This document shows, piece after piece, positions 1 to 15,935 of a stretch of DNA of 32,100 nt. The notes below the pieces were generated by a model. That model saw nothing but the letters and a program-made list of their open reading frames with translations. It made no database searches and was not told the origin of the DNA. Every line of letters begins with the position of its first letter. Positions within the stretch are counted from its first letter, which is position 1. The stretch spans positions 1 through 32,100 of the forward strand of contig JADZDJ010000145.1 in NCBI GenBank assembly GCA_020851115.1, in the 5' to 3' direction. The position numbers were made by a program, and so were the translations under genes. Source of the DNA: Pirellulales bacterium. GTDB lineage: Bacteria > Planctomycetota > Planctomycetia > Pirellulales > JADZDJ01.

Positions 1-321
1 GTCAAGCGAAGAGCCTTGAGCGAACTGCAACACGGCCGGGCAGTGGCCGCAGGTTGCCGAGTGCGGAGCTTAAATTGTCAAAGATCATCGGCCACCGCAT
101 GCCGTTTGGCACGACAGGCCGCACCAGCGACGGTGCTGGCCTGTCCATGTTATCGCATGTATAGGTATCTGTCAAGGGGCGAGGAATTAGATATATGGGA
201 TTAGGGCTGCCGGGCGGAATCGGATCGCGAAACCCCGAAAACACGAAAGAAAGCAGCGGCCACTTGCCCGGTCCCGTGATTTTCCAAGGTCGGCTCGCGG
301 GTGGATGATTTCGGAGGTTTA

Positions 322-411
322 ATGGCTGGCCTGCGTGGCCCGCTGGCCTATTCTATGCCTACGATGTTGTCGCCGCTGTCCGAAAGCCCTGGGCTATCGC
401 AGCCAGAGTAG
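322..411 (+). CDS. Possible 29-residue small protein
   Basis: An ATG at 322 is preceded four bases upstream by GGAGG at 313-317, one of the better Shine-Dalgarno matches in the window. The frame runs 29 codons to a TAG at 409-411, which falls at the edge of an inverted-repeat cluster. The peptide is rich in Leu, Pro and Ser, has three Met residues, and has no recognisable domain, signal peptide or membrane segment. It could be a genuine small gene, a leader peptide, or chance. The ribosome binding site is the only positive evidence, so confidence is low. Confidence 0.2.
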   Translation: MAGLRGPLAYSMPTMLSPLSESPGLSQPE

Positions 412-638: not shown

Positions 639-1496
639 ATGCCTTGGCAACCTACGGTAATCCAACGGTTCAACCGGGCATACCCAACATCCGCCTGTAC
701 GGCGCAGATTGTCACCGACGCGGGAATCGGCTACCTCAAAGCATTGGAAAGCCCCGAAGGTCGCCACACGCTCGTCTGCGAGTTAGTTGGAACTCGATTG
801 GCGCAATGGTTTGAGCTCCCGACGTTCGATTATTCGATTATTCGAGTCGATGCTGACGCGATTGATATTCCACTTCTCGATCAACACCAAAAGCAAATTG
901 GCATGGCGCAATCGGGTTCTGCGTTCATTACTCGCGCTGAAAATGGCGACAGTTGGAGCGGGAAAACCGAGCAACTCAACAAGCTTGTCAATCCGAACGA
1001 TATTGGCCGATTGATTGTTTTCGACACCTGGACGCTAAATTGCGACAGGCATTGTGATCCGCCGACTGGAACATTCGGCAAACCACGAATCAATCGAAAC
1101 AACGTATTTTTAAGTGAGGAAGCGCCTTCCGGGCAGTTCATGCTGAAGGCAATAGATCACACCCATTGCTTCACCTGCGGAGGGGAGTTGACGACAAAGC
1201 TCTTGCGGGATGATAAGATAAAGGAACCAAGAGTTTTCGGGGCCTTTGCGGAATTTTGGCCACTTCTGACTCAGGATGATGTCATGCTTGCTGTGCAAGC
1301 ACTGCGGAGCGTGAATCAGACTGTCGCCGACAACGCGACTGCGAGAATTCCAGGAGAATGGGATCTCAGCGAGAAAGTTCGGCAAGCGCTAGCAGAATTC
1401 ATTGTGCGAAGGGCGGCATTTGTTTCTGACACAATTTTCGGTAAGCTCTGGCCTCAGGCAAAGTTCGATTTCGACGATGTCGTCATTGGACCATAA
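639..1496 (+). CDS. HipA-like (HipA_2 family) kinase
   Basis: This 285-residue protein resembles the stand-alone HipA-like family, which keeps the kinase fold of the persistence toxin HipA but has no HipB antitoxin next to it. Visible elements in order are a candidate ATP-binding Lys34 in GYLKAL, a Glu48 in the following helix (LVCELVGTRLA), the catalytic-loop-like NCDRH at 134-138, Asn154/155 in the position of a metal-binding Asn, and Asp173 in AIDHTHCF as the DFG-like Asp. The frame is open back to 564, but the family begins close to residue 1 as chosen here, so the ATG at 639 is preferred. The stop is 5 bp before the DUF3037 gene, so the two are almost certainly cotranscribed. Target and role are unknown. 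One 60-base sample inside the gene (1081-1140) has 27 G+C, lower than the window's typical coding sequence, which fits accessory DNA. Confidence 0.8.
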   Translation: MPWQPTVIQRFNRAYPTSACTAQIVTDAGIGYLKALESPEGRHTLVCELVGTRLAQWFELPTFDYSIIRVDADAIDIPLLDQHQKQIGMAQSGSAFITRAENGDSWSGKTEQLNKLVNPNDIGRLIVFDTWTLNCDRHCDPPTGTFGKPRINRNNVFLSEEAPSGQFMLKAIDHTHCFTCGGELTTKLLRDDKIKEPRVFGAFAEFWPLLTQDDVMLAVQALRSVNQTVADNATARIPGEWDLSEKVRQALAEFIVRRAAFVSDTIFGKLWPQAKFDFDDVVIGP

Positions 1497-1501
1497 GTGT
1501 T

Positions 1502-2326
1502 ATGCAACCGACAAAGGGTTACTACTCGCTAATTCAATATTGCCCAGATGCTGGCCGCGTTGAGGCTGCCAACATCGGTGTGCTATTGTTTTGTCCTGAG
1601 CTAGGGTTCCTCGAAGCGAAAACGGTTCGAAACAACCGTCGAATCATTCGTTTCTTCGGAGTGGAAGGGCACGACTGGTCTCGCATCAACACTATGAAGC
1701 ATGGGCTTGAAGAGCGGCTAAAGGTAGAATCTAACGGTATTTATTCCCTTGATGACCTTGAGCGTTTCATTGCCTTGCGAGCAAACTTGCTGCAGATCAC
1801 GCCACCTCGCTCGATGCGGGTGACTGACCCGAAAAAGGATCTCGAATCGCTATTCACCGAAGTTATCGGTGAAACTGCAAAGCTTGCCTCGACCAAATCG
1901 CTCCGGAAAGTGCTTCAAGACCGAATCAAGGATGCTGGACTCGAAGAAAAAGTGATAAGTGATTTCGAGGTTCAAAGTCCGTTTACCAAGAAGGCAATCG
2001 AAGTTCCAATCGGTTATCAAAATGGCCGTTTTAATTTGGTGAAACCAGTACCGTTCGAAGCGGAAAATTCACAGCTGGCCTATAATACCGCGTGTCGGTA
2101 TGCCGTTGAAGGGCAATCGCTTTACGAACACCGAGACCCAACTCGCGGTGATTTGCAGTTAGTTGTCGTGGGCAAATTCCGATCAAAAGATCGAGAGTCT
2201 CCGTTGCTTGTTAGGAAGGTTTTAGAAGAGCACAAGGTAAGACTCTACCAATTTTCGGCATTGCCTGAGTTGGTCGCCGAAATTCGTCGAACGGCCAAGA
2301 AAATCTCTAACAAGCCAAACTGGTAG
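1502..2326 (+). CDS. DUF3037 domain protein, partner of the HipA-like kinase
   Basis: The N-terminus (GYYSLIQYCPDAGRVEAANI, followed by GVLLF) is the characteristic opening of DUF3037, covering roughly the first 120 residues. The remaining residues to 274 are mixed helix and strand with no recognised domain and no membrane segment, so the protein is probably cytoplasmic. DUF3037 genes are commonly found next to HipA_2-type kinase genes, and here the start codon lies only 5 bp past the kinase stop with no Shine-Dalgarno of its own, suggesting translational coupling. That makes a two-protein unit likely: an antitoxin-like, adaptor or substrate role for DUF3037 is inference only, as the family has no established biochemical function that I know of. 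A hairpin terminator follows at 2379-2403. Confidence 0.82.
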   Translation: MQPTKGYYSLIQYCPDAGRVEAANIGVLLFCPELGFLEAKTVRNNRRIIRFFGVEGHDWSRINTMKHGLEERLKVESNGIYSLDDLERFIALRANLLQITPPRSMRVTDPKKDLESLFTEVIGETAKLASTKSLRKVLQDRIKDAGLEEKVISDFEVQSPFTKKAIEVPIGYQNGRFNLVKPVPFEAENSQLAYNTACRYAVEGQSLYEHRDPTRGDLQLVVVGKFRSKDRESPLLVRKVLEEHKVRLYQFSALPELVAEIRRTAKKISNKPNW

Positions 2327-2343
2327 TTTTCGTTTATGCAATA

Positions 2344-2640
2344 CTATCTCTGTTTGCGAGCGGCCGTTCTTCGGCCTGGCCGGTGACCGACAACCGGCTT
2401 TTTAGGTTTTCCGCGAAAATGATCCCCTTCGCGTTCGCGAACTTCTTCGTTTGCCTTGCGGCGGCCATCCTCGAACAACTCCGCTGCACTGTCCAGCAGT
2501 TGTTGCTTCCAAGCCGCCACCTGGCTGGCATGCACTTGGAACTGGGAGGCCAACTCGGCCGTCGTCTGCTGCTCACGAACCGCCGCCAAGGCCACCTTCA
2601 CCTTGAAGGCGCCACCAAACGCCCGCCGCTTCCTGGTCAC
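2344..2640 (-). pseudogene. Truncated IS3-family transposase OrfA
   Basis: The first 65-75 residues match the OrfA helix-turn-helix protein of IS3-family insertion sequences: a basic start (MTRKRRAFGGAFKVKVALAA), then the segment TTAELASQFQVHASQVAAW, then a leucine-rich stretch ending LFEDGRR. OrfA binds the element ends and is normally fused by frameshifting to the DDE integrase OrfB. Here similarity is lost after about residue 75 (near position 2416). The usual C-terminal leucine zipper is missing, and no OrfB is present. The frame then runs by chance through the terminator of the upstream unit. This is therefore a remnant that cannot transpose on its own. What is left marks the junction of the accessory HipA-like/DUF3037 cassette with the phosphoesterase region. 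Confidence 0.8.
2379..2403 (+). terminator. Rho-independent terminator of the HipA-like/DUF3037 unit
   Basis: GCCGGT (2379-2384) and ACCGGC (2393-2398) form a perfect 6-bp stem around an 8-base loop, followed immediately by TTTTT at 2399-2403. A G-T wobble can extend the stem by one pair. It lies 52 bp after the DUF3037 stop and reads in the same direction. It also lies inside the reading frame of the broken IS3 orfA, but beyond the point where that frame stops resembling a transposase. Confidence 0.7.
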
Positions 2641-5786: not shown

Positions 5787-8700
5787 ATGGGTTTCCGGTC
5801 ATGGCGCCCGATTCGAACCAATTCTAAGAAGCAACTTCAACGGCGGAACGAAAAGCGGCGGCGCGGCTACGTCGCTCGGCAATACGAGCACTTGCTGTTT
5901 GAACCGTTGGAATGGCGACAATTGCTGACGGTGACGCTAGCGCCCATCGCGGGCAGCGACGCGGGGGGCGTGTTCAAAATCCCCTCCGGCAAGGTTCTCT
6001 ATGTGCCGCTGACAGGCGCCGACACGGGCAACACGGTCAGCTATTCGGCGACGAGCAGCGATTCGCAGGTGCAGGTCCACGTCATGGACGGTAATCCGAC
6101 GTTGCAGCTTCAGGTTCACGGCACACGCAGCGGCGGCGCGACCTTCTCTGGGACGTTGAACATCGAACTGTTCGATAATCTTGCGCACGACACGGTGCAG
6201 ACGATTTCGAATCTGGTGAACTCAGGCGTTTACAACGGCAAACAGTTTTATCGCATTGTGCCGAACTTTGTCATTCAAGGAGGCTTGCAAGGTTCGCCCG
6301 CGGAGCCGCAGTTTCCCGACGAATTCAATGCGCTGCTCTCGTTCAATAGCCCCGGCCTGTTGGCGATGGCCAATCCCGGCAACCCCGACAAGAATACGTC
6401 GGAATTCTTTGTTACGGATATCGATCTGCCGCTGTCGAGCGATCCGCAGCATCTCAATTTCCGCCACAACATTTTCGGTCAGTTGACGAGCGGATTCAAT
6501 ACTTATCAGGACATCATGAATGCGCAGGGAATTACCTCGGATAATTCCACTCCCAGCCCGGCCGTGATCATCGATTCCGCAACCATCGTCGGCGGTGGCG
6601 ATCAAAGCGCCGTGCTGCAAGTCATCGTGCCGAACGATTTCACCGGCGTTTCGTCGATCAACGTCACCGCAACATCGTCCGACACGAGCACGGCAGCACA
6701 GTCGTTCAACATCAATGCCGCGCCGGCCACGACTCCCACCGACTCACAGCCGATCATCCTCGCCCCCGTAACCGACAAGCTCACCACGACCAACGCGCCG
6801 ATCAGTTTTCCCATTTCCGCCAGCGTGCTATCGGGAGTGACGCTCGATAGCACCCCCTTTTCCGTCACCGGATCCGATGAATTTCGGTCGACACCGCAAC
6901 ATGTGACCGTGCAAGTGACTCCGGGCGCCAATAACACGGCGACGGTAACGCTGACGCCGGCCGCCGGCTTTACCGGCTCGATCGATTTGGTGCTTCACGC
7001 CGACGACAGTGCCCTTAATTATCACGACGCAATGCGGTTTGCACTGAATGTCGTCGCCCCCGTTGCGATGACTTCGCATACCAACCCCGTCAATGTATCT
7101 ACCGGGCCAACTGCTTCAGTAGGCGGCACGGGTGAGCCAGACGCCACGATCTCTGTCGTGGTCAGCGACGGCACGCATTCGACGAATCCACAAACGACCA
7201 CTGTCGCGCAAGACGGAACGTGGTCGATCGGCGGTATCAACCTGAGTTCATTCGACTCAGGGAACATCACCTACACGGCAACCGACACGACAAACAATAC
7301 GACACCGGCCACCGCCAGCGCCGTGTTCGATGTCACCTCGCCCACCGTCGTGATCTCTCCCGTTGGCCCGATCAATAACACCAACGTAGCCAATTTCACG
7401 GTGAACGGCACCGGCGAAGTCGGCTCTACCATTTCGCTCGTGGTCAGCGATGGATCCACGACGGCCGGTCCGTTGACTACGACGGTCAACGACGCAGGAA
7501 ATTGGACGATCTCCAACATCAATCTGACCAGCTTGCTCGATGGAACGATCACGATGACCGCCACGGCGACGGATGCCGGCGATAATTCGGCCCAAGACAG
7601 CGAAATCGTCACCAAAGACGTCGTCGCCCCCGACGTTTCGATTACGACCGCCTCCAATCCGATCACGCTGGAAAACATAACCACCGCGTCAATCAGCGGC
7701 ACCGGCGAAGTCGACGCGACGATCACCCTGGTCATCACCGACGGCACGCACTCGACCGATCCCCTGACGACAACGGTCGCCGGCAATGGCACATGGTCGT
7801 TCGCGGGCGTCGATCTCAAGGATTTGGACGATGGGACCATCACCTATCAGGCGACCGCCGCGGACGCCGCCGGCAACGAAGCCAGCGATACGTCGGATGC
7901 GGTCAAGTTGGCGGTGGCTGTGACGGCGTTTACCAATCCGATCAATCTTGCCAACGTCGCGAGCGCATCGATCGGCGGCACTGGCGCAGCCGATGTGGAA
8001 ATCTCCGTCGAAATCAGCGACGGCAATGCCGGCCATACCCCGATTACCGAGACGGCGACGATCGGCAGCAACGGGCTTTGGTCGATCACAGGCATCGATC
8101 TGTCGGCATTGGACGACGGCACGATCACCTACAAGGTGACCGCCACCGATGCCGAGGAAAACTCCGTCGAGTTGACGCGCACCGCGCTCATGGATGTCGT
8201 CGCTCCGGCCATCGCCATCACCGGCGTCACCAATCCCATCAATGCCAGCAACGCCAGCAACGTGGTGGTTAGTGGCACGACGGACGTCGGCGCGACCGTC
8301 GTCGTCAAGGCGAGCATCAACGGCAACGAGACTGGGACTGTCAACGCAACGGTCGATTCCAACGGCCAATGGACCGCCACGATCGACGTCGGCTCGTTGG
8401 CCGACGGCACGCTCTCGTTCACGGCGACGGCCACGGACGCCGTCGCCAATTCCGCGGCCGATACTGAAACGGCCGCCAAAGACACGGTCGCCCCAGTCGT
8501 CACGATTAGTTCGGCGACCGATCCTATTACGTCGGGCAACCAATCCAACGCATCGATTAGTGGAAACGTTACCGGCACCGGCAGTGAAGCGACGACAATC
8601 ACGGTCGTCATTAACGACAACGACGGATCGACGCCGGCCGTCACCCGCACCGCAACTGTCAGCAGCGATGGAAGTTGGTCGATCACGGACGTCGATCTTA

Positions 8701-11700
8701 CTTCGCTCGATGACGGCCAAATCACTTACTCCGTCACCGCCGCGGACGTCGCCGGCAACGCAAGCGCTCCGGCCACTCTCAACGCCGTAAAGAGCGTCGC
8801 CGACAACAGCCTTTCAGGCTTTGCCTACGTCGATGCCGATGGCGACAAACAGAAAGACACGAACGAGGCGATCCTTGGGGGCATCTTGGTTACGCTGCTG
8901 GGGGTCGATCCCGGCGGCAATCCCATCCCTTCGCAAACCACGACGACCGCCAGCGACGGATCGTATCACTTCGACAATCTGCCCGCGGGAACCTACACCC
9001 TGCGCGAAGCTCAACCCAGCCAGTTTAAGAGCAGCGGTGCCACCGCCGGCAATTTGGGCGGCCAAGCGGCGATCGATATAATCACGCAGATCGTCATTTC
9101 CGGCGGCCAAGATGGAACCGACTACAATTTCGGCGAAAAAGGCCTGAAATCGTCCTTGGTAACCATCAACGACTTTCTCGCTTCGACGCCGCCGGCTCAG
9201 GAGCGCTACAACAACGCCGTCGCCAACGGCACAAGCACGGCCACGGTCGAATCGATCGCCAAGCTCGATGCCGATCCCGCCAACGGCAGCCAGGTGCGAT
9301 ACACGGTGACGTTCAATCGGAACGTCAGCGGCGTCGATGCCGCCGATTTCCAAGTGATCGCGCCCGGCAACCATGTCACCGGCGCTTCGATCGCCAGCGT
9401 GAGCGGCAGCGGCAAGACATACACCGTCACGGTCAACACCGGCACGGGCAGTGGCATGCTCGGTCTGGCGCTGCGAGACAACGATTCGATTCTGGACAGC
9501 AACAGTGGGAAGCTCGGCGGCACTGGCACGGGCAACGGCGATTTTGTTGCCCCCTATTACAACGTCTCTAAAGCGCTCAACGTCTCCATCGACCAACCGG
9601 CCGCGATCAATTCCGCGAACCAACACAACATCAGCGCCAGCGGCACGGCCGAAGCGAATTCGACCGTCAAGCTCACCATCAGCAATGGAGCGAATTCGCT
9701 GGCGGAGCGGCAAACCACCGCCAACAACAGCGGCAATTGGACGATCTCGAATATCGACGTTTCGACACTGCCTGAGGGCACGATCACGTTTTCCGCCACC
9801 GCCACCGTCGGTTCGGTCACTTCGGCTCCGGCGACCAAGACGACGTCGAAAGACACCGTTGCGCCGGCCGTTGCAATCACATCGGCGACCAATCCGATCG
9901 GCGACGCTCAAGATCAGAATGTGAATGTGAGCGGCACGGTTGAAGTAGGCTCGACCGTTTCCGTTGTGGCCACCGATGGCACGACCACCACCTCGGCCGT
10001 GTCGGCCACCGTCGATGCGAGTGGAAACTGGTCCATCGCCGGCTTCAATGTAAGCAGTTTGCAGGATGGTTCGATCACGTTCACGGCCACGGCCACCGAT
10101 GCCGCGGGCAACACGGCAACCGGCTCCACGACGGCGACCAAAGACACGGTCGCGCCGGCCGTTGCAATCACGATGGTCACGCCGACGGTTATTAACAGCG
10201 CTAACCAAAGCAGCGTCGGCGTTTCCGGCACGGCCGAAGCAGACGCCAGTATTACGCTGTCGGCCAGCAACGGCGCGAATTCGATCACCCCGTTGACGAC
10301 CACCGCGGACTCCAATGGCAATTGGAGCGTGAGCAACATCGACGTGAGCACACTAGCGGACGGCACAATCATCTTCCGCGCCACCGCGAGCGACGCCGCC
10401 GGTAATCCCGCCAACGCGACGCAGGAGGCCACCAAGGATACGGTCGCTCCGGCAGTCACACTCGCCGATCCGCCCATAATCATTCTCGGCAACGAGACCA
10501 ACTATGCCGTGAGCGGCACCGGCGAAGCCGGCGCGACGGTGGCGATTGTCATCGGCGACGGCACGAACCCCAACATCACGCCGGCGGCGGCAACCGTCGG
10601 CCAGGACGGCCTGTGGACGATCGCCGGCATCGACCTGAGCGGCTTGTCGGACGGCACGATCACTTTTACGGTCTCCGCAACCGATGCCGCGGCCAACACT
10701 TCGGCGCCGACCTCGAAGACCGCACAGAAAATCACCACAGCGCCGGAAGTTGCGCTGTCCGAAGTCACCGACCCCATCGGCATCGACAATCAGCATTCGA
10801 CCACCGCCAGCGGCACGAGCGAAGAAGGCGTGACGATTTCCGTGGTGGCCAGCGACGGCACGCACACGACCGCTCCCAAATCGGTCGTCGTGGGCAATTC
10901 CGGCACATGGACGATCGTGGACATCGACGTCAGCGCTTTGGACGACGGCACGATTACCTATACGGCCACTGCCACCGATATCATCGGCAACACGGCAACG
11001 AGCGACCTGACCGCGACCAAGACGACGGTGGCCATTACCTCGGTCACCGATCCGATCAACGCCGCAAATCAAGCCAGCGTTTCGGCCGCCGGTGTCGGCG
11101 AGCCGAACGCCAGCATCGCGCTCACGATCGATGACGGCGACGACCAAACCGCGCCGATTCAAACCACAGGCTCCATCGATCTTAATGGCGATTGGTCCAT
11201 CTCGGGGATCGATGTCAGTTCTCTCACCGATGGCACGCTCACCTTCACGGTGACCGCCACCAGCGCCAATGACAACACGGCCTCGAAGAGCCTCACCGCC
11301 GCCAAGGATACAGTCGCTCCGGCGGTCGATATTACCTCGGTCACCGATCCGATCGTTTCCGCGAATCTCGCGAGCGTCGCCGTCAGTGGCACGGGGGAAG
11401 CTGGCGCAAGCGTGACCGTGGTGATTGGCGACGGCGCCAACTCGGACATTACTCCGCCAGCGGTGACGGTGGGCGAGGACGGCCACTGGACGATCGCCGG
11501 CATCGACGTTAGCTCGCTCGCCGACGGCGCGATTACCTTCATGGCCGTGGCCACGGATAACGTCGGCAATTCGTCTGCCCCGGCCACAGCGACGGCCACG
11601 AAAGACACTGTCGCGCCCGAGCTAAGCATTGGCGATGTCACCGACCCCATCGGGCTGGCGAATTACCATTCGACGGCGATCCAGGGCACCGGCGAAGCAG

Positions 11701-14700
11701 GAGCATCCGTCAAAGTGATTGCCACGGATGGAACCACTTCGACCAGTGAATTCACCACCACCGTCGGTCAAGATGGCAACTGGTCGATTTCCGGCATCGA
11801 CGTCGGCACCTTAAACGACGGCACGATCACTTACCACGTGACCGCGACGGATGAGGCAGGCAATGAGACGGACGGAAGCGCGACGGCCACCAAAGCGACG
11901 GTCGCCATTACGTCGGCGACCGATCCGGTCAACGGCAGCAACGTCGCGCACATTGCCATCGGCGGCACGGGCGAGGTGGACGCAGCCATCGCCGTCGTCG
12001 TCACGGACGGTACCACCACGACCAGCCAATACACCACGACCATCGATGCGGGGGGCACTTGGTCGATTTCGGACATGGATGCGAGCGCGTTGGCGGACGG
12101 CACGATCACCTACATGGTGACGGCGACCGACAGCGGCAGCCATTCGGCCACGGCCAGTAAGACCGCTCTCAAAGACACGGAGCCGCCGGCGCTGAGGGTA
12201 CTCGACTATACCCATCCGATCGGAATTGGAAACCAGCACAGCTTGACAGTTCAAGGCATTGCCTCTCCAGAAGCCATCGTCTCCGTGTTCGTTACCGATG
12301 GCACGAACTCAACGACCGTGCTCACCACGATGGCCGATCCGGATCATACCGAATTCACCATCTCCGGCATCGACGTCAGCGCATTGGCGGATGGCCAAGT
12401 CACTTACAAGGTGACGGCGACCGATCCAGCGGGCAACGAGCGCACGGACGACAAAGAGACCGGCAAATCGACGGTTGCAATCACTGCTGTCACCGATCCG
12501 ATCATTCTCACGAATGCCACGACGACCTCGATCGTCGGAACCGGCGAAGCAAACGCCGACATCTCGGTTGTGGCCAGCGACAGCGACAGCGCAACCACCA
12601 CGGAATATACCACGACGATCAACGCCGACGGCAATTGGTCCATTGCCAATATCGACGTCAGCGCCTTGAAAGACGGCGTCATCACCTATACGGCGACCGC
12701 CACCGATGCCGACAGCAATTCGGCGACCAGCAGCAAGACCGCAACCAAGAATACCGTCGCCATCACCATGGTCACCGATCCGATCAACGCGGCCAACCAG
12801 GCGAGCGTTTCGATCGGTGGAACTAGCGCAGTTGGGGCGATCGTCGCAGTCGCAATTAGCGACGGGGTCAATCCCGAGATCACCGGGCAAACCGTCATTG
12901 TTGACGGCAGCGGCCATTGGTCGATCGAGGGTGTCGATGTCACCGCGCTTGCCGACGGCGAGCTGACCTTTACGGCAACGGCGACCTTGGGCGCAAACGT
13001 CGGGCACGCCACGATGACCGCCACCAAAGACGTCGTCGCTCCTTCCATCGTGATTACATCGGCCACCAATCCCATCGGTACGCCGACCCAATCGAATACG
13101 ACGGCCAGCGGTACGACCGAAGCCGGAGCGACCATCGTCTTGTATGTCACCGATGCACTCGAGATGACCACAACCTACAACGGCATCGCCGATGGCAGCG
13201 GCCATTGGACCATTTCCGGCATCGACGTCAGCGCCCTGAACGATGGCGCTGTGGGATTCGTCGCGACCGCCACGGATTTGGCTGGGAATACTTCTTTAGA
13301 AGGCGTGCGTTTGGCCTACAAGGACACGGTAGCGCCAACGGTCGAAATGACGCTGGTCACCGAAGTGATCGATTTCACCAACTTCCACAATACTTCCGCC
13401 AGTGGAACCGTAGAGTCCGGCGCGATTGTCTCGGTCGTCGCCAGCGACGGAACGAACTCGACCGCTCCTGTAACGGCTGTCGTGGAGAATGACGGCAGTT
13501 GGTCGGCAACCGGGATCGACGTCAGCCTGTTGCTGGGCGGCGTCATCACATTCACCGCCACCGCCACCGACTCCGCCGGAAACACCGCCACCGACAGTCT
13601 AACGGCAATGCTGGCGACGGTTTCGATCACTTCGGTCACGGATCCGATTGTGCCGACGAACGACGACACGACGACCGCCAGCGGCACCGGCTCTCCAGGC
13701 GCTGCAATTGCACTGAAAGCGAGCGATGCATCGAGTGCGGCAACGAGCGAATACACGACGACGATTGCGATCGACGGCACATGGACCATTAGTGACATTG
13801 ACGTGAGCATGCTCGTCGATGGCCAAATTACTTATACTGCGACGGCCACATTCGGAGCCGAGACGTCGGTCTCCACCAAGACGGCGACCAAAGACACGAC
13901 TCCACCGACGCTAACCATCGATGCCGACAGCGTCACGAATCCGATCAACATCGTCAACGCAGCGAGCACTTCGCTTTCCGGCACGGTCGAACCTGGTTTG
14001 CTCGTCGCGGTCACGGTCACCGATGGAATAACCATACTCGGTCCGTTTGCAGCCGTTGTCGAACCGGACGGCGCATGGGCGGCCGATGGCATCGATGTCA
14101 GCAGCCTGTTTGATTCCACACTGACCTATTCCGTCACGGCCACCGACGCCGCTGGGAACTCGACTCAAACGAGCCGAACTGCCAATAAGGAAACGGTCGC
14201 GCCAAACGTCACGGGCCTTACGCTAACCGATCCGAATCCGACTTTGGAGCTTACCGTCCACTTTACGGTCGTGTTTAGCGAAGCGGTAACGGGCGTTGGC
14301 ACGAGTAGCTTTACGACAGTTCCGGGTGGCGACGTGTTAGGTGCTTCGATTGACAACGTTTCGGGCAGCGGCGATACCTACACCGTCACCGTCAGCTTTG
14401 GCGGCGGCGCCGGCACGATCGGACTCAATGTGAACGATGTCGACCAGATTTTTGACCTGTCCGGCAATCCGCTGGGCGGGCTGGGCGATCACAACGGCGA
14501 TTTTACCGGCGAGGTTTATACCGTCGGCGATTTGTCGTCTGCCAAGAATGTCTTTGACTTTGGCGCCGTCGGCGACGGCGTCGCCGATGATACCGCGGCC
14601 ATTCAAGCGGCGATCGACGCTGCGATTGCGGACGGCGGAGGCGTGGTTTACATTCCCGCCGGCACGTTTGCCGTGAGCGCTTCGTTGGTGGTTCAAGAAG

Positions 14701-15935
14701 CCTCCAACGTGCATATCATCGGCGCTGGCAAAGGGCAGACGGTGTTGGTGTCGGCCCCCGATCTTGGTTCGTATACCTTCCACGGGACTTCGACCGCCGC
14801 CGTGATCCTGCTGTCGGAATCCAACCATTGTTCGGTGCGCAATCTGACGGTGGACAAGCGCGGCGAAACCAGCACGTACAACGGCATTTCGCTGTGGTAC
14901 GGGTTTGCCGGCGGCGGCACACCCAGTTCCAACTGCGACATTGTCGACTGCGAAGTGCTTTCCAGCGGCACGCACTATTCGTATCAAATCTGGCTATTGA
15001 ACGCTCAGCACAGCCGCGTTCTGAACTGCACGGTAGATGGCGGAAAAGACGTGCCCGATTTGGGCGACGATTCCTCCGACGGCATCGAAGCCTTCGGCGG
15101 TTACGATATCGAAATCAGAGGAAACAACGTCAAGCGCGTCGATGGCATCGGCATTCACCTGTTCCAAGACCCCTTGCTATCCGATGCGAGCCACGACACC
15201 ATTGTGGTCACCGACAATGTCGTCGAGACGTGCTTTCGCGGAATAGGAGGTCCGATCGCGGTTGGCACGCACAATGTCACCATCGCCAACAACACCATTA
15301 CCGGATCGATTGGGCGCGGGATCGGATTTACCTCCAACTCTGCGGTCGTGATCGAGAAGCTGAACATTTTGAATAATGAGATTGAGAATTGCAACGAAGG
15401 TGTGACGATCTTTAGCACTGGCGGACCGATCATGAGCGACGTGTTGATCGACGGCAACACCGTGACTGGCACGACATCGACCAACACCGGCGCCATCTAT
15501 TTGCAGGGCTGCAACAACGTTCAAGTCTCCAATAACCAAATCAGCAATACCACGCTTCAGTCGATTCGGCTAAACTCTTGCGACCAGATACAAATCCTCG
15601 ACAATACGTGCGACAATTCCGGGACCGAAGCGGCGTCGAAGCACGTCCAAATATGGACGAGCAGCAATGTGCTCATTCAAGACAACTGGTTTGGAAAAAT
15701 CGGCGTCGCCGGTTCGGTGATCCGCACCGACGGAAGCAGTTCGAACATCAACTTGGTCGATAACACGTTCGATAACTCGGGCGGATTGCAGAGCTGGGCC
15801 GCGTTTTTCGCCGACGTCACCGGGGGCAGCATTGTCGGCAATCAATTAGTGAACGAATCCGACTTCTATGCTCCCGCGTGGGTTATTTATCCGAGTTCCA
15901 GCAACATCACGTTCAACAACAACGATGGGATGTAG
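5787..15935 (+). CDS. Giant secreted protein: LEPR-like motif, cyclophilin, 22 Ig-like repeats, SdrD B-like domain, pectate-lyase beta-helix
   Basis: 3,382 residues. The basic N-terminus holds FEPLEWRQLL (38-47), a variant of the LEPR-XLL motif of large planctomycete exported proteins. Residues ~115-270 are a cyclophilin-type prolyl isomerase: FYRIVPNFVIQGG keeps the catalytic Arg, MANPGNP and FFVTD follow, and the position of the cyclosporin-binding Trp is His. An uncharacterised beta-rich linker (~272-427) leads to six Ig-like repeats (428-1007). Next come an SdrD B/Cna-B-like domain with the acidic loop DADGDKQKDTNE (1008-~1115), a FtVtFs-type beta domain (1154-1265) and sixteen more Ig-like repeats (1266-2809). 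A second FtVtFs domain follows (2810-2920). The C-terminus is a Pectate_lyase_3 right-handed beta-helix starting NVFDFGAVGDGVADDT (2921-3382) with Asn-ladder turns. No dockerin, sorting motif or C-terminal anchor is visible. The ATG has GAGG 8 bases upstream. Role inferred: surface or matrix protein that binds or cleaves polysaccharide. Confidence 0.9.
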   Translation: MGFRSWRPIRTNSKKQLQRRNEKRRRGYVARQYEHLLFEPLEWRQLLTVTLAPIAGSDAGGVFKIPSGKVLYVPLTGADTGNTVSYSATSSDSQVQVHVMDGNPTLQLQVHGTRSGGATFSGTLNIELFDNLAHDTVQTISNLVNSGVYNGKQFYRIVPNFVIQGGLQGSPAEPQFPDEFNALLSFNSPGLLAMANPGNPDKNTSEFFVTDIDLPLSSDPQHLNFRHNIFGQLTSGFNTYQDIMNAQGITSDNSTPSPAVIIDSATIVGGGDQSAVLQVIVPNDFTGVSSINVTATSSDTSTAAQSFNINAAPATTPTDSQPIILAPVTDKLTTTNAPISFPISASVLSGVTLDSTPFSVTGSDEFRSTPQHVTVQVTPGANNTATVTLTPAAGFTGSIDLVLHADDSALNYHDAMRFALNVVAPVAMTSHTNPVNVSTGPTASVGGTGEPDATISVVVSDGTHSTNPQTTTVAQDGTWSIGGINLSSFDSGNITYTATDTTNNTTPATASAVFDVTSPTVVISPVGPINNTNVANFTVNGTGEVGSTISLVVSDGSTTAGPLTTTVNDAGNWTISNINLTSLLDGTITMTATATDAGDNSAQDSEIVTKDVVAPDVSITTASNPITLENITTASISGTGEVDATITLVITDGTHSTDPLTTTVAGNGTWSFAGVDLKDLDDGTITYQATAADAAGNEASDTSDAVKLAVAVTAFTNPINLANVASASIGGTGAADVEISVEISDGNAGHTPITETATIGSNGLWSITGIDLSALDDGTITYKVTATDAEENSVELTRTALMDVVAPAIAITGVTNPINASNASNVVVSGTTDVGATVVVKASINGNETGTVNATVDSNGQWTATIDVGSLADGTLSFTATATDAVANSAADTETAAKDTVAPVVTISSATDPITSGNQSNASISGNVTGTGSEATTITVVINDNDGSTPAVTRTATVSSDGSWSITDVDLTSLDDGQITYSVTAADVAGNASAPATLNAVKSVADNSLSGFAYVDADGDKQKDTNEAILGGILVTLLGVDPGGNPIPSQTTTTASDGSYHFDNLPAGTYTLREAQPSQFKSSGATAGNLGGQAAIDIITQIVISGGQDGTDYNFGEKGLKSSLVTINDFLASTPPAQERYNNAVANGTSTATVESIAKLDADPANGSQVRYTVTFNRNVSGVDAADFQVIAPGNHVTGASIASVSGSGKTYTVTVNTGTGSGMLGLALRDNDSILDSNSGKLGGTGTGNGDFVAPYYNVSKALNVSIDQPAAINSANQHNISASGTAEANSTVKLTISNGANSLAERQTTANNSGNWTISNIDVSTLPEGTITFSATATVGSVTSAPATKTTSKDTVAPAVAITSATNPIGDAQDQNVNVSGTVEVGSTVSVVATDGTTTTSAVSATVDASGNWSIAGFNVSSLQDGSITFTATATDAAGNTATGSTTATKDTVAPAVAITMVTPTVINSANQSSVGVSGTAEADASITLSASNGANSITPLTTTADSNGNWSVSNIDVSTLADGTIIFRATASDAAGNPANATQEATKDTVAPAVTLADPPIIILGNETNYAVSGTGEAGATVAIVIGDGTNPNITPAAATVGQDGLWTIAGIDLSGLSDGTITFTVSATDAAANTSAPTSKTAQKITTAPEVALSEVTDPIGIDNQHSTTASGTSEEGVTISVVASDGTHTTAPKSVVVGNSGTWTIVDIDVSALDDGTITYTATATDIIGNTATSDLTATKTTVAITSVTDPINAANQASVSAAGVGEPNASIALTIDDGDDQTAPIQTTGSIDLNGDWSISGIDVSSLTDGTLTFTVTATSANDNTASKSLTAAKDTVAPAVDITSVTDPIVSANLASVAVSGTGEAGASVTVVIGDGANSDITPPAVTVGEDGHWTIAGIDVSSLADGAITFMAVATDNVGNSSAPATATATKDTVAPELSIGDVTDPIGLANYHSTAIQGTGEAGASVKVIATDGTTSTSEFTTTVGQDGNWSISGIDVGTLNDGTITYHVTATDEAGNETDGSATATKATVAITSATDPVNGSNVAHIAIGGTGEVDAAIAVVVTDGTTTTSQYTTTIDAGGTWSISDMDASALADGTITYMVTATDSGSHSATASKTALKDTEPPALRVLDYTHPIGIGNQHSLTVQGIASPEAIVSVFVTDGTNSTTVLTTMADPDHTEFTISGIDVSALADGQVTYKVTATDPAGNERTDDKETGKSTVAITAVTDPIILTNATTTSIVGTGEANADISVVASDSDSATTTEYTTTINADGNWSIANIDVSALKDGVITYTATATDADSNSATSSKTATKNTVAITMVTDPINAANQASVSIGGTSAVGAIVAVAISDGVNPEITGQTVIVDGSGHWSIEGVDVTALADGELTFTATATLGANVGHATMTATKDVVAPSIVITSATNPIGTPTQSNTTASGTTEAGATIVLYVTDALEMTTTYNGIADGSGHWTISGIDVSALNDGAVGFVATATDLAGNTSLEGVRLAYKDTVAPTVEMTLVTEVIDFTNFHNTSASGTVESGAIVSVVASDGTNSTAPVTAVVENDGSWSATGIDVSLLLGGVITFTATATDSAGNTATDSLTAMLATVSITSVTDPIVPTNDDTTTASGTGSPGAAIALKASDASSAATSEYTTTIAIDGTWTISDIDVSMLVDGQITYTATATFGAETSVSTKTATKDTTPPTLTIDADSVTNPINIVNAASTSLSGTVEPGLLVAVTVTDGITILGPFAAVVEPDGAWAADGIDVSSLFDSTLTYSVTATDAAGNSTQTSRTANKETVAPNVTGLTLTDPNPTLELTVHFTVVFSEAVTGVGTSSFTTVPGGDVLGASIDNVSGSGDTYTVTVSFGGGAGTIGLNVNDVDQIFDLSGNPLGGLGDHNGDFTGEVYTVGDLSSAKNVFDFGAVGDGVADDTAAIQAAIDAAIADGGGVVYIPAGTFAVSASLVVQEASNVHIIGAGKGQTVLVSAPDLGSYTFHGTSTAAVILLSESNHCSVRNLTVDKRGETSTYNGISLWYGFAGGGTPSSNCDIVDCEVLSSGTHYSYQIWLLNAQHSRVLNCTVDGGKDVPDLGDDSSDGIEAFGGYDIEIRGNNVKRVDGIGIHLFQDPLLSDASHDTIVVTDNVVETCFRGIGGPIAVGTHNVTIANNTITGSIGRGIGFTSNSAVVIEKLNILNNEIENCNEGVTIFSTGGPIMSDVLIDGNTVTGTTSTNTGAIYLQGCNNVQVSNNQISNTTLQSIRLNSCDQIQILDNTCDNSGTEAASKHVQIWTSSNVLIQDNWFGKIGVAGSVIRTDGSSSNINLVDNTFDNSGGLQSWAAFFADVTGGSIVGNQLVNESDFYAPAWVIYPSSSNITFNNNDGM
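7068..8807 (+). repeat. First block of six Ig-like repeats (about 290 bp each)
   Basis: Six tandem units of about 97 residues encode bacterial Ig-like domains. Each follows the pattern NPI..N..., SGTGE.(G/D)AT, VVSDGT, TTTV..DG.WSI, DGTITYTATATDAAGN, K..VAP. Units differ clearly at the DNA level, so the array is old and not a recent expansion. It ends at the SdrD B-like domain. Confidence 0.9.
9582..14213 (+). repeat. Second block of sixteen Ig-like repeats (279-297 bp each)
   Basis: Sixteen units of 93-99 codons. Unit starts are at 9582, 9876, 10167, 10461, 10755, 11034, 11331, 11628, 11907, 12198, 12480, 12762, 13053, 13347, 13626 and 13917. Units at 10755, 11628 and 13347 are exactly 279 bp and lack the APxV tail of the linker. 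The array contains higher-order triplets of about 865 bp, described in the findings. Confidence 0.9.

What the first reader, a model, noticed from the sequence alone, without database searches (positions are those of the whole stretch)
639..2403. HipA-like kinase and DUF3037 form a compact two-gene unit beside an IS scar: possible defence or toxin module
The genes are 5 bp apart, share one terminator and sit between non-coding DNA and an IS3 remnant, and a 60-base sample (27 G+C of 60) is more AT-rich than the neighbouring genes (36 of 60 at 8101-8160). HipA-type kinases can phosphorylate translation factors, and no HipB-like antitoxin is present, so DUF3037 is the only candidate partner. The function of the pair is not established to my knowledge.
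Basis: partly seen in the sequence, partly recalled or inferred. Interest (0 to 1): 0.6.

Follow-up and report, generated by a model that had tools for sequence, protein, structure and literature searches.

The report
HipA-like kinase with DUF3037 antitoxin
A planctomycete carries a two-gene unit, a HipA-like toxin kinase followed by its probable DUF3037 antidote protein, that belongs to the recently described HipAD (PDC-M66) anti-phage family; it is a new member of a known kind rather than an unknown system.

Summary
Gene A (639-1496, HipA_2 kinase) and gene B (1502-2326, DUF3037) lie 5 bp apart, are intact and conserved, and have 49.5% G+C against 59.5% for the rest of the contig (z -6.6). 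The function is no longer open: the pair matches PADLOC candidate PDC-M66 and is a homologue of HipAD/DS-6. In published E. coli assays of relatives, deleting the kinase abolishes defence, a kinase-dead mutant loses it, and deleting the DUF3037 gene is toxic. The kinase lies directly before DUF3037 in 55 of 64 bacterial loci; several sit beside or inside type I restriction operons. The pair is mobile: a family relative carries it at another locus, and the right-hand neighbour's orthologues lie elsewhere without it. Two points go beyond the papers I could read. The second half of protein B is predicted to be a PD-(D/E)XK nuclease-like domain without conserved catalytic residues. DUF3037-only proteins without any kinase occur mainly in viral contigs, which suggests phage-borne antidotes. 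I did not show that A and B bind: a fused model had pTM 0.63. New member of a known kind; modest interest.

The parts
639..1496 (+). Gene A: HipA-like Ser/Thr kinase (HipA_2), presumed toxin and effector; 285 aa
   Evidence: PF20613 2.4e-11; PDC-M66A 2e-4; phrog_3162 1e-19; homologue's model resembles PI4KII, CtkA and HipA/HipT kinases
738..740 (+). Lys34, invariant, likely ATP-binding lysine
   Evidence: invariant in 43 homologues; role from HipA/PI4K-like kinase anatomy (knowledge)
1044..1046 (+). Asp136 of the N-x-D-R catalytic motif, invariant
   Evidence: aligned with N-A-D-R of the phage HipA of PhiR5_1
1101..1103 (+). Asn155, invariant, likely Mg-binding Asn
   Evidence: role inferred
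1155..1157 (+). Asp173, invariant, DFG-equivalent Mg-binding Asp
   Evidence: role inferred
1502..2326 (+). Gene B: two-domain DUF3037 protein, presumed antitoxin and regulator; 274 aa
   Evidence: PF11236 1.6e-15; PDC-M66B 3.6e-12 over residues 7-264; full-length profile match to the HipD group, E 6e-31; AlphaFold2 pLDDT 92.8
1502..1867 (+). N-terminal DUF3037 domain (residues 1-122), with nearly all the strongly conserved residues (Q12, E21, G26 invariant); presumed kinase-binding part
   Evidence: function inferred
1874..2299 (+). C-terminal domain (residues 125-266), PD-(D/E)XK nuclease-like fold without conserved catalytic Asp or (D/E)xK; conserved N174-G175 and N178
   Evidence: VIA-align Z 9.0 to BstEII (rmsd 3.7, 134 aligned), 8.8 to PspGI (rmsd 3.1, 128 aligned); conservation table
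2378..2399 (+). Terminator-like hairpin with T-rich tail after gene B (weak)
1..401 (.). Part of a dispersed repeat of about 750 bp (6 further copies found, 82-85% identical); the contig starts inside it
2344..2640 (-). Transposase orfA remnant; a multicopy IS end reaches to about 2723

Best explanation
It is a mobile, chromosomally carried toxin-antitoxin-like anti-phage module of the HipAD / PDC-M66 kind. Gene A makes a HipA-fold Ser/Thr kinase that stops growth when free, probably by phosphorylating a translation component. Gene B makes a two-domain protein: the N-terminal DUF3037 domain holds the kinase inactive, and the C-terminal nuclease-like but probably non-catalytic domain binds DNA or otherwise senses infection or regulates the operon. 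Phage infection releases the kinase and the infected cell arrests before phage are made. For this member, sequence shows the pair, its intactness, the conserved kinase motifs, the family membership and the mobility. Experiments on relatives show defence, kinase dependence and toxicity without DUF3037. Inference only: the substrate, the trigger, direct A-B binding, and the role of the C-terminal domain.
For: Pair signature: Pfam, PADLOC PDC-M66A/B, phage families phrog_3162 and phrog_5137. Linkage: the kinase lies directly upstream on the same strand in 55 of 64 bacterial loci, mostly with a 4-base overlap or 0-15 bp gap. Intact kinase motifs. Constraint: against the G393 copy, 62%/60% of third codon positions differ but only 15%/17% of second positions. 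Homology of B to HipD of Escherichia phage PhiR5_1 over its whole length. Defence contexts: HsdR before and HsdM after the pair in L036, HsdM-HsdS before the pair in L042, Mrr and Shedu SduA in L034, GmrSD in L033. Type I methyltransferase models match up to 7 of 147 near neighbours, but no methyltransferase model is among the families listed for 128 distant ones. Mobility: G+C below flanks in 12 of 13 planctomycete pairs; different locus in G393, absent from G392. Experiments on relatives: PMC12548924, PMC13092281.
Against: No experiment on this member. The kinase matches PDC-M66A only weakly (2e-4) and is 29% identical to phage HipA over 135 aa. The right-hand 29 kb of the contig is ordinary physiology, not a defence island; the left side is cut off. 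A read-through A-B fusion model of a homologue had pTM 0.63, so binding was not shown. In L088 the DUF3037 frame is split while the kinase frame is intact, which a strict antitoxin should not allow unless it is a MAG sequencing error. Full-length DUF3037 without a detected kinase occurs in L065, L094 and L119.
Confidence: 0.78

Rival explanations
1. A HipBA-like toxin-antitoxin pair kept mainly for stabilising mobile DNA or for stress dormancy, with phage defence incidental or absent in this host.
For: Low G+C, mobile placement beside a repeat and an IS remnant; kinase fold close to HipA/HipT; toxicity on deletion of DUF3037 in the Sda1 case (PMC12548924).
Against: Two experimentally tested relatives defend against phage; recurrent restriction-modification neighbours; carriage by temperate phages.
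Confidence: 0.13
2. Not a toxin pair: gene B's nuclease-like domain is the effector (a DNA-targeting nuclease) and the kinase regulates it.
For: Predicted PD-(D/E)XK-like fold of residues 125-266.
Against: No acidic or lysine position in the domain is conserved as a PD-(D/E)XK active site would require; the conserved residues are N174, G175, N178, G204 and L220. In Sda1 loss of DUF3037 is toxic and loss of the kinase removes defence.
Confidence: 0.04
3. A decaying or silent remnant of mobile DNA with no present function.
For: Flanked by a repeat fragment and a broken transposase gene; only 1 of 2 searched family relatives carries it.
Against: Both frames intact and full length; synonymous sites near saturation while protein sequence is constrained; all kinase motifs kept.
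Confidence: 0.05

Closest known systems
HipAD / DS-6 (Brenes & Laub 2025, cited in PMC13092281; HipA and HipD of Escherichia phage PhiR5_1)
   Same: Two genes, HipA_2 kinase then DUF3037 protein, same order and tight spacing; B homologous over the full length by profile (E 6e-31); kinase motif N-x-D-R shared.
   Different: Only about 27-29% identity in the best-aligned parts; DS-6B is reported with a DUF1829 domain, which Pfam does not find in B here, although a nuclease-like C-terminal domain is predicted.
PADLOC candidate PDC-M66 (M66A/M66B)
   Same: B matches M66B over residues 7-264 (3.6e-12); A matches M66A.
   Different: A's match is weak and partial (2e-4, residues 42-141).
Retron-Sda1-associated HipA/DUF3037 pair (PMC12548924)
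   Same: Same two domains, acting as a standalone defence pair.
   Different: There the pair lies in a retron operon; here the operon has two genes only and no retron gene was noted, but the contig ends 638 bp upstream.
HipBA and HipBST toxin-antitoxin systems
   Same: Kinase of the HipA/HipT fold as growth-arresting toxin.
   Different: No HipB-type HTH antitoxin and no HipS; the DUF3037 partner of DS-6 has no similarity to HipB in the published description (PMC13092281).

Membership tests
HipAD / PDC-M66 | HipA_2-type kinase gene | tested here: met
   PF20613 43.8 bits over cut-off 27; PDC-M66A 2e-4
HipAD / PDC-M66 | DUF3037 partner gene directly downstream, same strand | tested here: met
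   PF11236 57.8 bits over cut-off 22.6, gap 5 bp; PDC-M66B 3.6e-12
HipAD / PDC-M66 | Kinase catalytic residues intact | tested here: met
   K34, N134, D136, R137, N155, D173 invariant in 43 homologues
HipAD / PDC-M66 | B homologous to HipD over its whole length | tested here: met
   hhalign 99.9%, E 6e-31, 260 columns
HipAD / PDC-M66 | DUF1829 domain in B as reported for DS-6B | tested here: inconclusive
   Pfam finds none in B, nor in HipD of PhiR5_1, at E up to 10; B's C-terminal fold is nuclease-like
HipAD / PDC-M66 | Defence against phage, toxicity of the kinase without B | not testable with these tools
   shown only for relatives
HipAD / PDC-M66 | A-B complex | tested here: inconclusive
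   fusion model of homologue L070: pLDDT 91.8 but pTM 0.63
HipBA / HipBST | HipB-type HTH antitoxin gene in the operon | tested here: not met
   no other gene in the operon; B holds DUF3037 only by Pfam
PD-(D/E)XK nuclease superfamily (C-terminal domain of B) | Core fold | tested here: met
   residues 125-266, Z 9.0 BstEII, 8.8 PspGI, 8.0 Ecl18kI; these Z values are only modestly above the noted background of 7-8
PD-(D/E)XK nuclease superfamily (C-terminal domain of B) | Conserved catalytic Asp and (D/E)xK | tested here: not met
   no such conserved positions in 52 sequences

The most novel reading that the evidence does not exclude
DUF3037 is a portable antidote domain. Phages carry DUF3037-only proteins (106-190 aa, no kinase within reach) to disarm HipAD kinases of their hosts, while the bacterial two-domain protein adds a dead nuclease-like domain that serves as the DNA or infection sensor.
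Probability: 0.2. Interest if true: 0.6.

Novelty: new member of a known kind. Interest (0 to 1): 0.3.

Why it matters
The pair extends an experimentally supported but mechanistically open defence system to Planctomycetota and its neighbours, with over 50 aligned homologues that mark the residues to test. The predicted nuclease-like domain gives a concrete, checkable hypothesis for how the antitoxin half could sense phage, and the kinase-free DUF3037 proteins in viral contigs suggest a possible counter-defence that can be tested directly.

Tried and rejected
(1) Close relatives by single-sequence scan in genome contigs: none; the alignment query found 64. (2) Plasmid records: no match. (3) Sequence search of solved structures with both profiles: nothing useful. 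(4) dN/dS: synonymous sites saturated, no ratio obtained; codon-position differences used instead. (5) A-B interaction by folding an in-frame read-through of L070: domains confident, arrangement not. (6) Rfam on the window and on the repeat: nothing at gathering score, one chance-level hit. (7) IS family of the right-hand remnant: unresolved. (8) The original HipAD paper (Cell Host Microbe 2025) is not held; it is known here only through PMC13092281. (9) A search for the short DUF3037 protein of L120 in phage records: none. (10) A HipA family survey (PMC8262856) does not mention DUF3037. (11) No fold is claimed for the N-terminal DUF3037 domain: the structure matches cover residues 125-268 only and leave it barely tested.

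Full report
What is there. The window is a whole contig (C145, 32,100 bp) of a 5.2 Mb planctomycete genome in 304 contigs. Gene A (639-1496) and gene B (1502-2326) are intact, co-directional and 5 bp apart. A is a HipA_2 kinase and B a DUF3037 protein by Pfam, both over the curated cut-offs. They are the only such genes in the genome. Their G+C is 0.495 against 0.595 for the rest of the contig, 6.6 standard deviations below windows of the same length. The left flank is a piece of a repeat of about 750 bp with six more copies found in this genome; the right flank is an orfA-like transposase remnant with a multicopy IS end.

What it is. PADLOC names the two genes PDC-M66A and PDC-M66B. Two papers tested relatives. 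In Retron-Sda1 (PMC12548924) the HipA kinase and DUF3037 protein protect against phage Bas51 without the retron parts; deleting the kinase removes defence and deleting DUF3037 is toxic. DefensePredictor (PMC13092281) validated DS-6, renamed HipAD, with loss of defence in a kinase-dead mutant and a predicted complex of the two proteins with DNA. A phage record, Escherichia phage PhiR5_1, annotates the pair as HipA toxin and HipD antitoxin beside cI. By profile comparison B is homologous to the HipD group over its full length (E 6e-31), although pairwise identity is low.

Conservation and linkage. An alignment-based scan of bacterial genomes found 64 loci in Planctomycetota, Verrucomicrobiota, Acidobacteriota, Myxococcota and others. 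In 55 the kinase gene is directly upstream of DUF3037 on the same strand, usually overlapping by 4 bases or within 15 bp. K34, N134, D136, R137, N155 and D173 of the kinase are invariant in 43 sequences. Between the window and its nearest relative (68-69% protein identity) about 60% of third codon positions differ but only 15-17% of second positions: both proteins are under constraint.

Mobility and context. DUF3037 occurs in 13 of 392 planctomycete genomes, and 12 of 13 pairs examined have lower G+C than their flanks (sign test 0.003). The family relative G393 has the pair on a contig that shares only the pair with the window, while the orthologue of the window's right-hand neighbour, a metallophosphoesterase, lies on another contig in a neighbourhood shared with G392, which lacks the pair. 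The gene tree clusters by phylum but not perfectly; I do not count this as proof of transfer. Type I restriction genes adjoin the pair in L036 (HsdR before, HsdM after) and L042 (HsdM-HsdS before); L034 has Mrr and Shedu genes and L033 a GmrSD gene nearby. In a coarse comparison, type I methyltransferase models match up to 7 of 147 genes within 2 kb of the pair, whereas no methyltransferase is among the 25 families listed for 128 genes more than 4 kb away. The comparison is crude: gene calls were simple longest frames and the output lists counts per model only.

Structure. AlphaFold2 on B with 51 relatives gives pLDDT 92.8 and two domains, with pTM 0.64. Residues 125-266 resemble PD-(D/E)XK proteins: BstEII Z 9.0, PspGI 8.8, a CdiA toxin/CdiI complex 8.7, Cdn1 8.5, Ecl18kI 8.0. 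Foldseek's first hits were Card1 and Cdn1. These scores are only modestly above the background the tool describes, but the list is consistent and the order of helices and strands fits. No conserved acidic or lysine position could form the active site; the conserved hairpin is N174-G175-x-x-N178. I therefore read it as a non-catalytic nuclease-like domain, possibly for DNA binding, which is inference. In a read-through fusion of homologue L070, the kinase half resembles PI4KII (Z 15.8), CtkA (15.7), HipT (12.0) and HipA (11.6), but the arrangement of the domains is not confident (pTM 0.63).

Mechanism. The most likely scheme is a kinase toxin held by DUF3037 and freed on infection, leading to growth arrest. 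Shown for relatives: defence, kinase dependence, toxicity without DUF3037. Shown here: presence, intactness, motifs, linkage, homology, mobility. Not shown: substrate, trigger, binding, role of B's second domain.

Loose ends. Short DUF3037-only proteins without any detectable kinase occur in six of eight viral loci and about four of 60 bacterial ones (Fisher p 5e-5; 0.001 after removing near-duplicates). These counts are small and IMG/VR assignments may err, but they suggest phage-borne antidotes. Short DUF3037 proteins next to a kinase also occur (L112, and by weak kinase matches L114 and L116), so the N-terminal domain may suffice as partner. L088 has an intact kinase frame beside a split DUF3037 frame, unexplained unless it is a sequencing error.

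Verdict.

Noticed in passing
L120, L121, L122, L123, L124, L126 (viral contigs); L083, L092, L103, L108 (bacterial contigs): DUF3037-only proteins of 106-190 aa with no kinase detected in the fetched flanks; in L083 directly behind a type I specificity gene, in L103 near thyX. Possible phage antidotes to HipAD kinases.
   Followed up: partly
window 1-401: Piece of a dispersed non-coding repeat of about 750 bp, at least six more copies in the genome (82-85% identical); a motif at 371-402 (within CGCCGCTGTCCGAAAGCCCTGGGCTATCGCAG) recurs across the order.
   Followed up: partly
L036 5557-12696; L042 9151-13815: HipA/DUF3037 pairs embedded in or adjoining type I restriction-modification operons of planctomycetes.
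   Followed up: partly
L088 6128-7801: Kinase frame intact but the DUF3037 gene split into two frames, contrary to a strict antitoxin role unless it is a sequencing error; L090 shows the reverse, a broken kinase frame with intact DUF3037.
   Followed up: no
window 5787-15935: Giant 3382-aa predicted surface protein with a cyclophilin domain, many bacterial Ig-like repeats and a C-terminal pectate-lyase-like beta helix.
   Followed up: no
L065, L094, L119: Full-length DUF3037 proteins without a detected kinase upstream; in L065 a RadC domain gene precedes it.
   Followed up: partly
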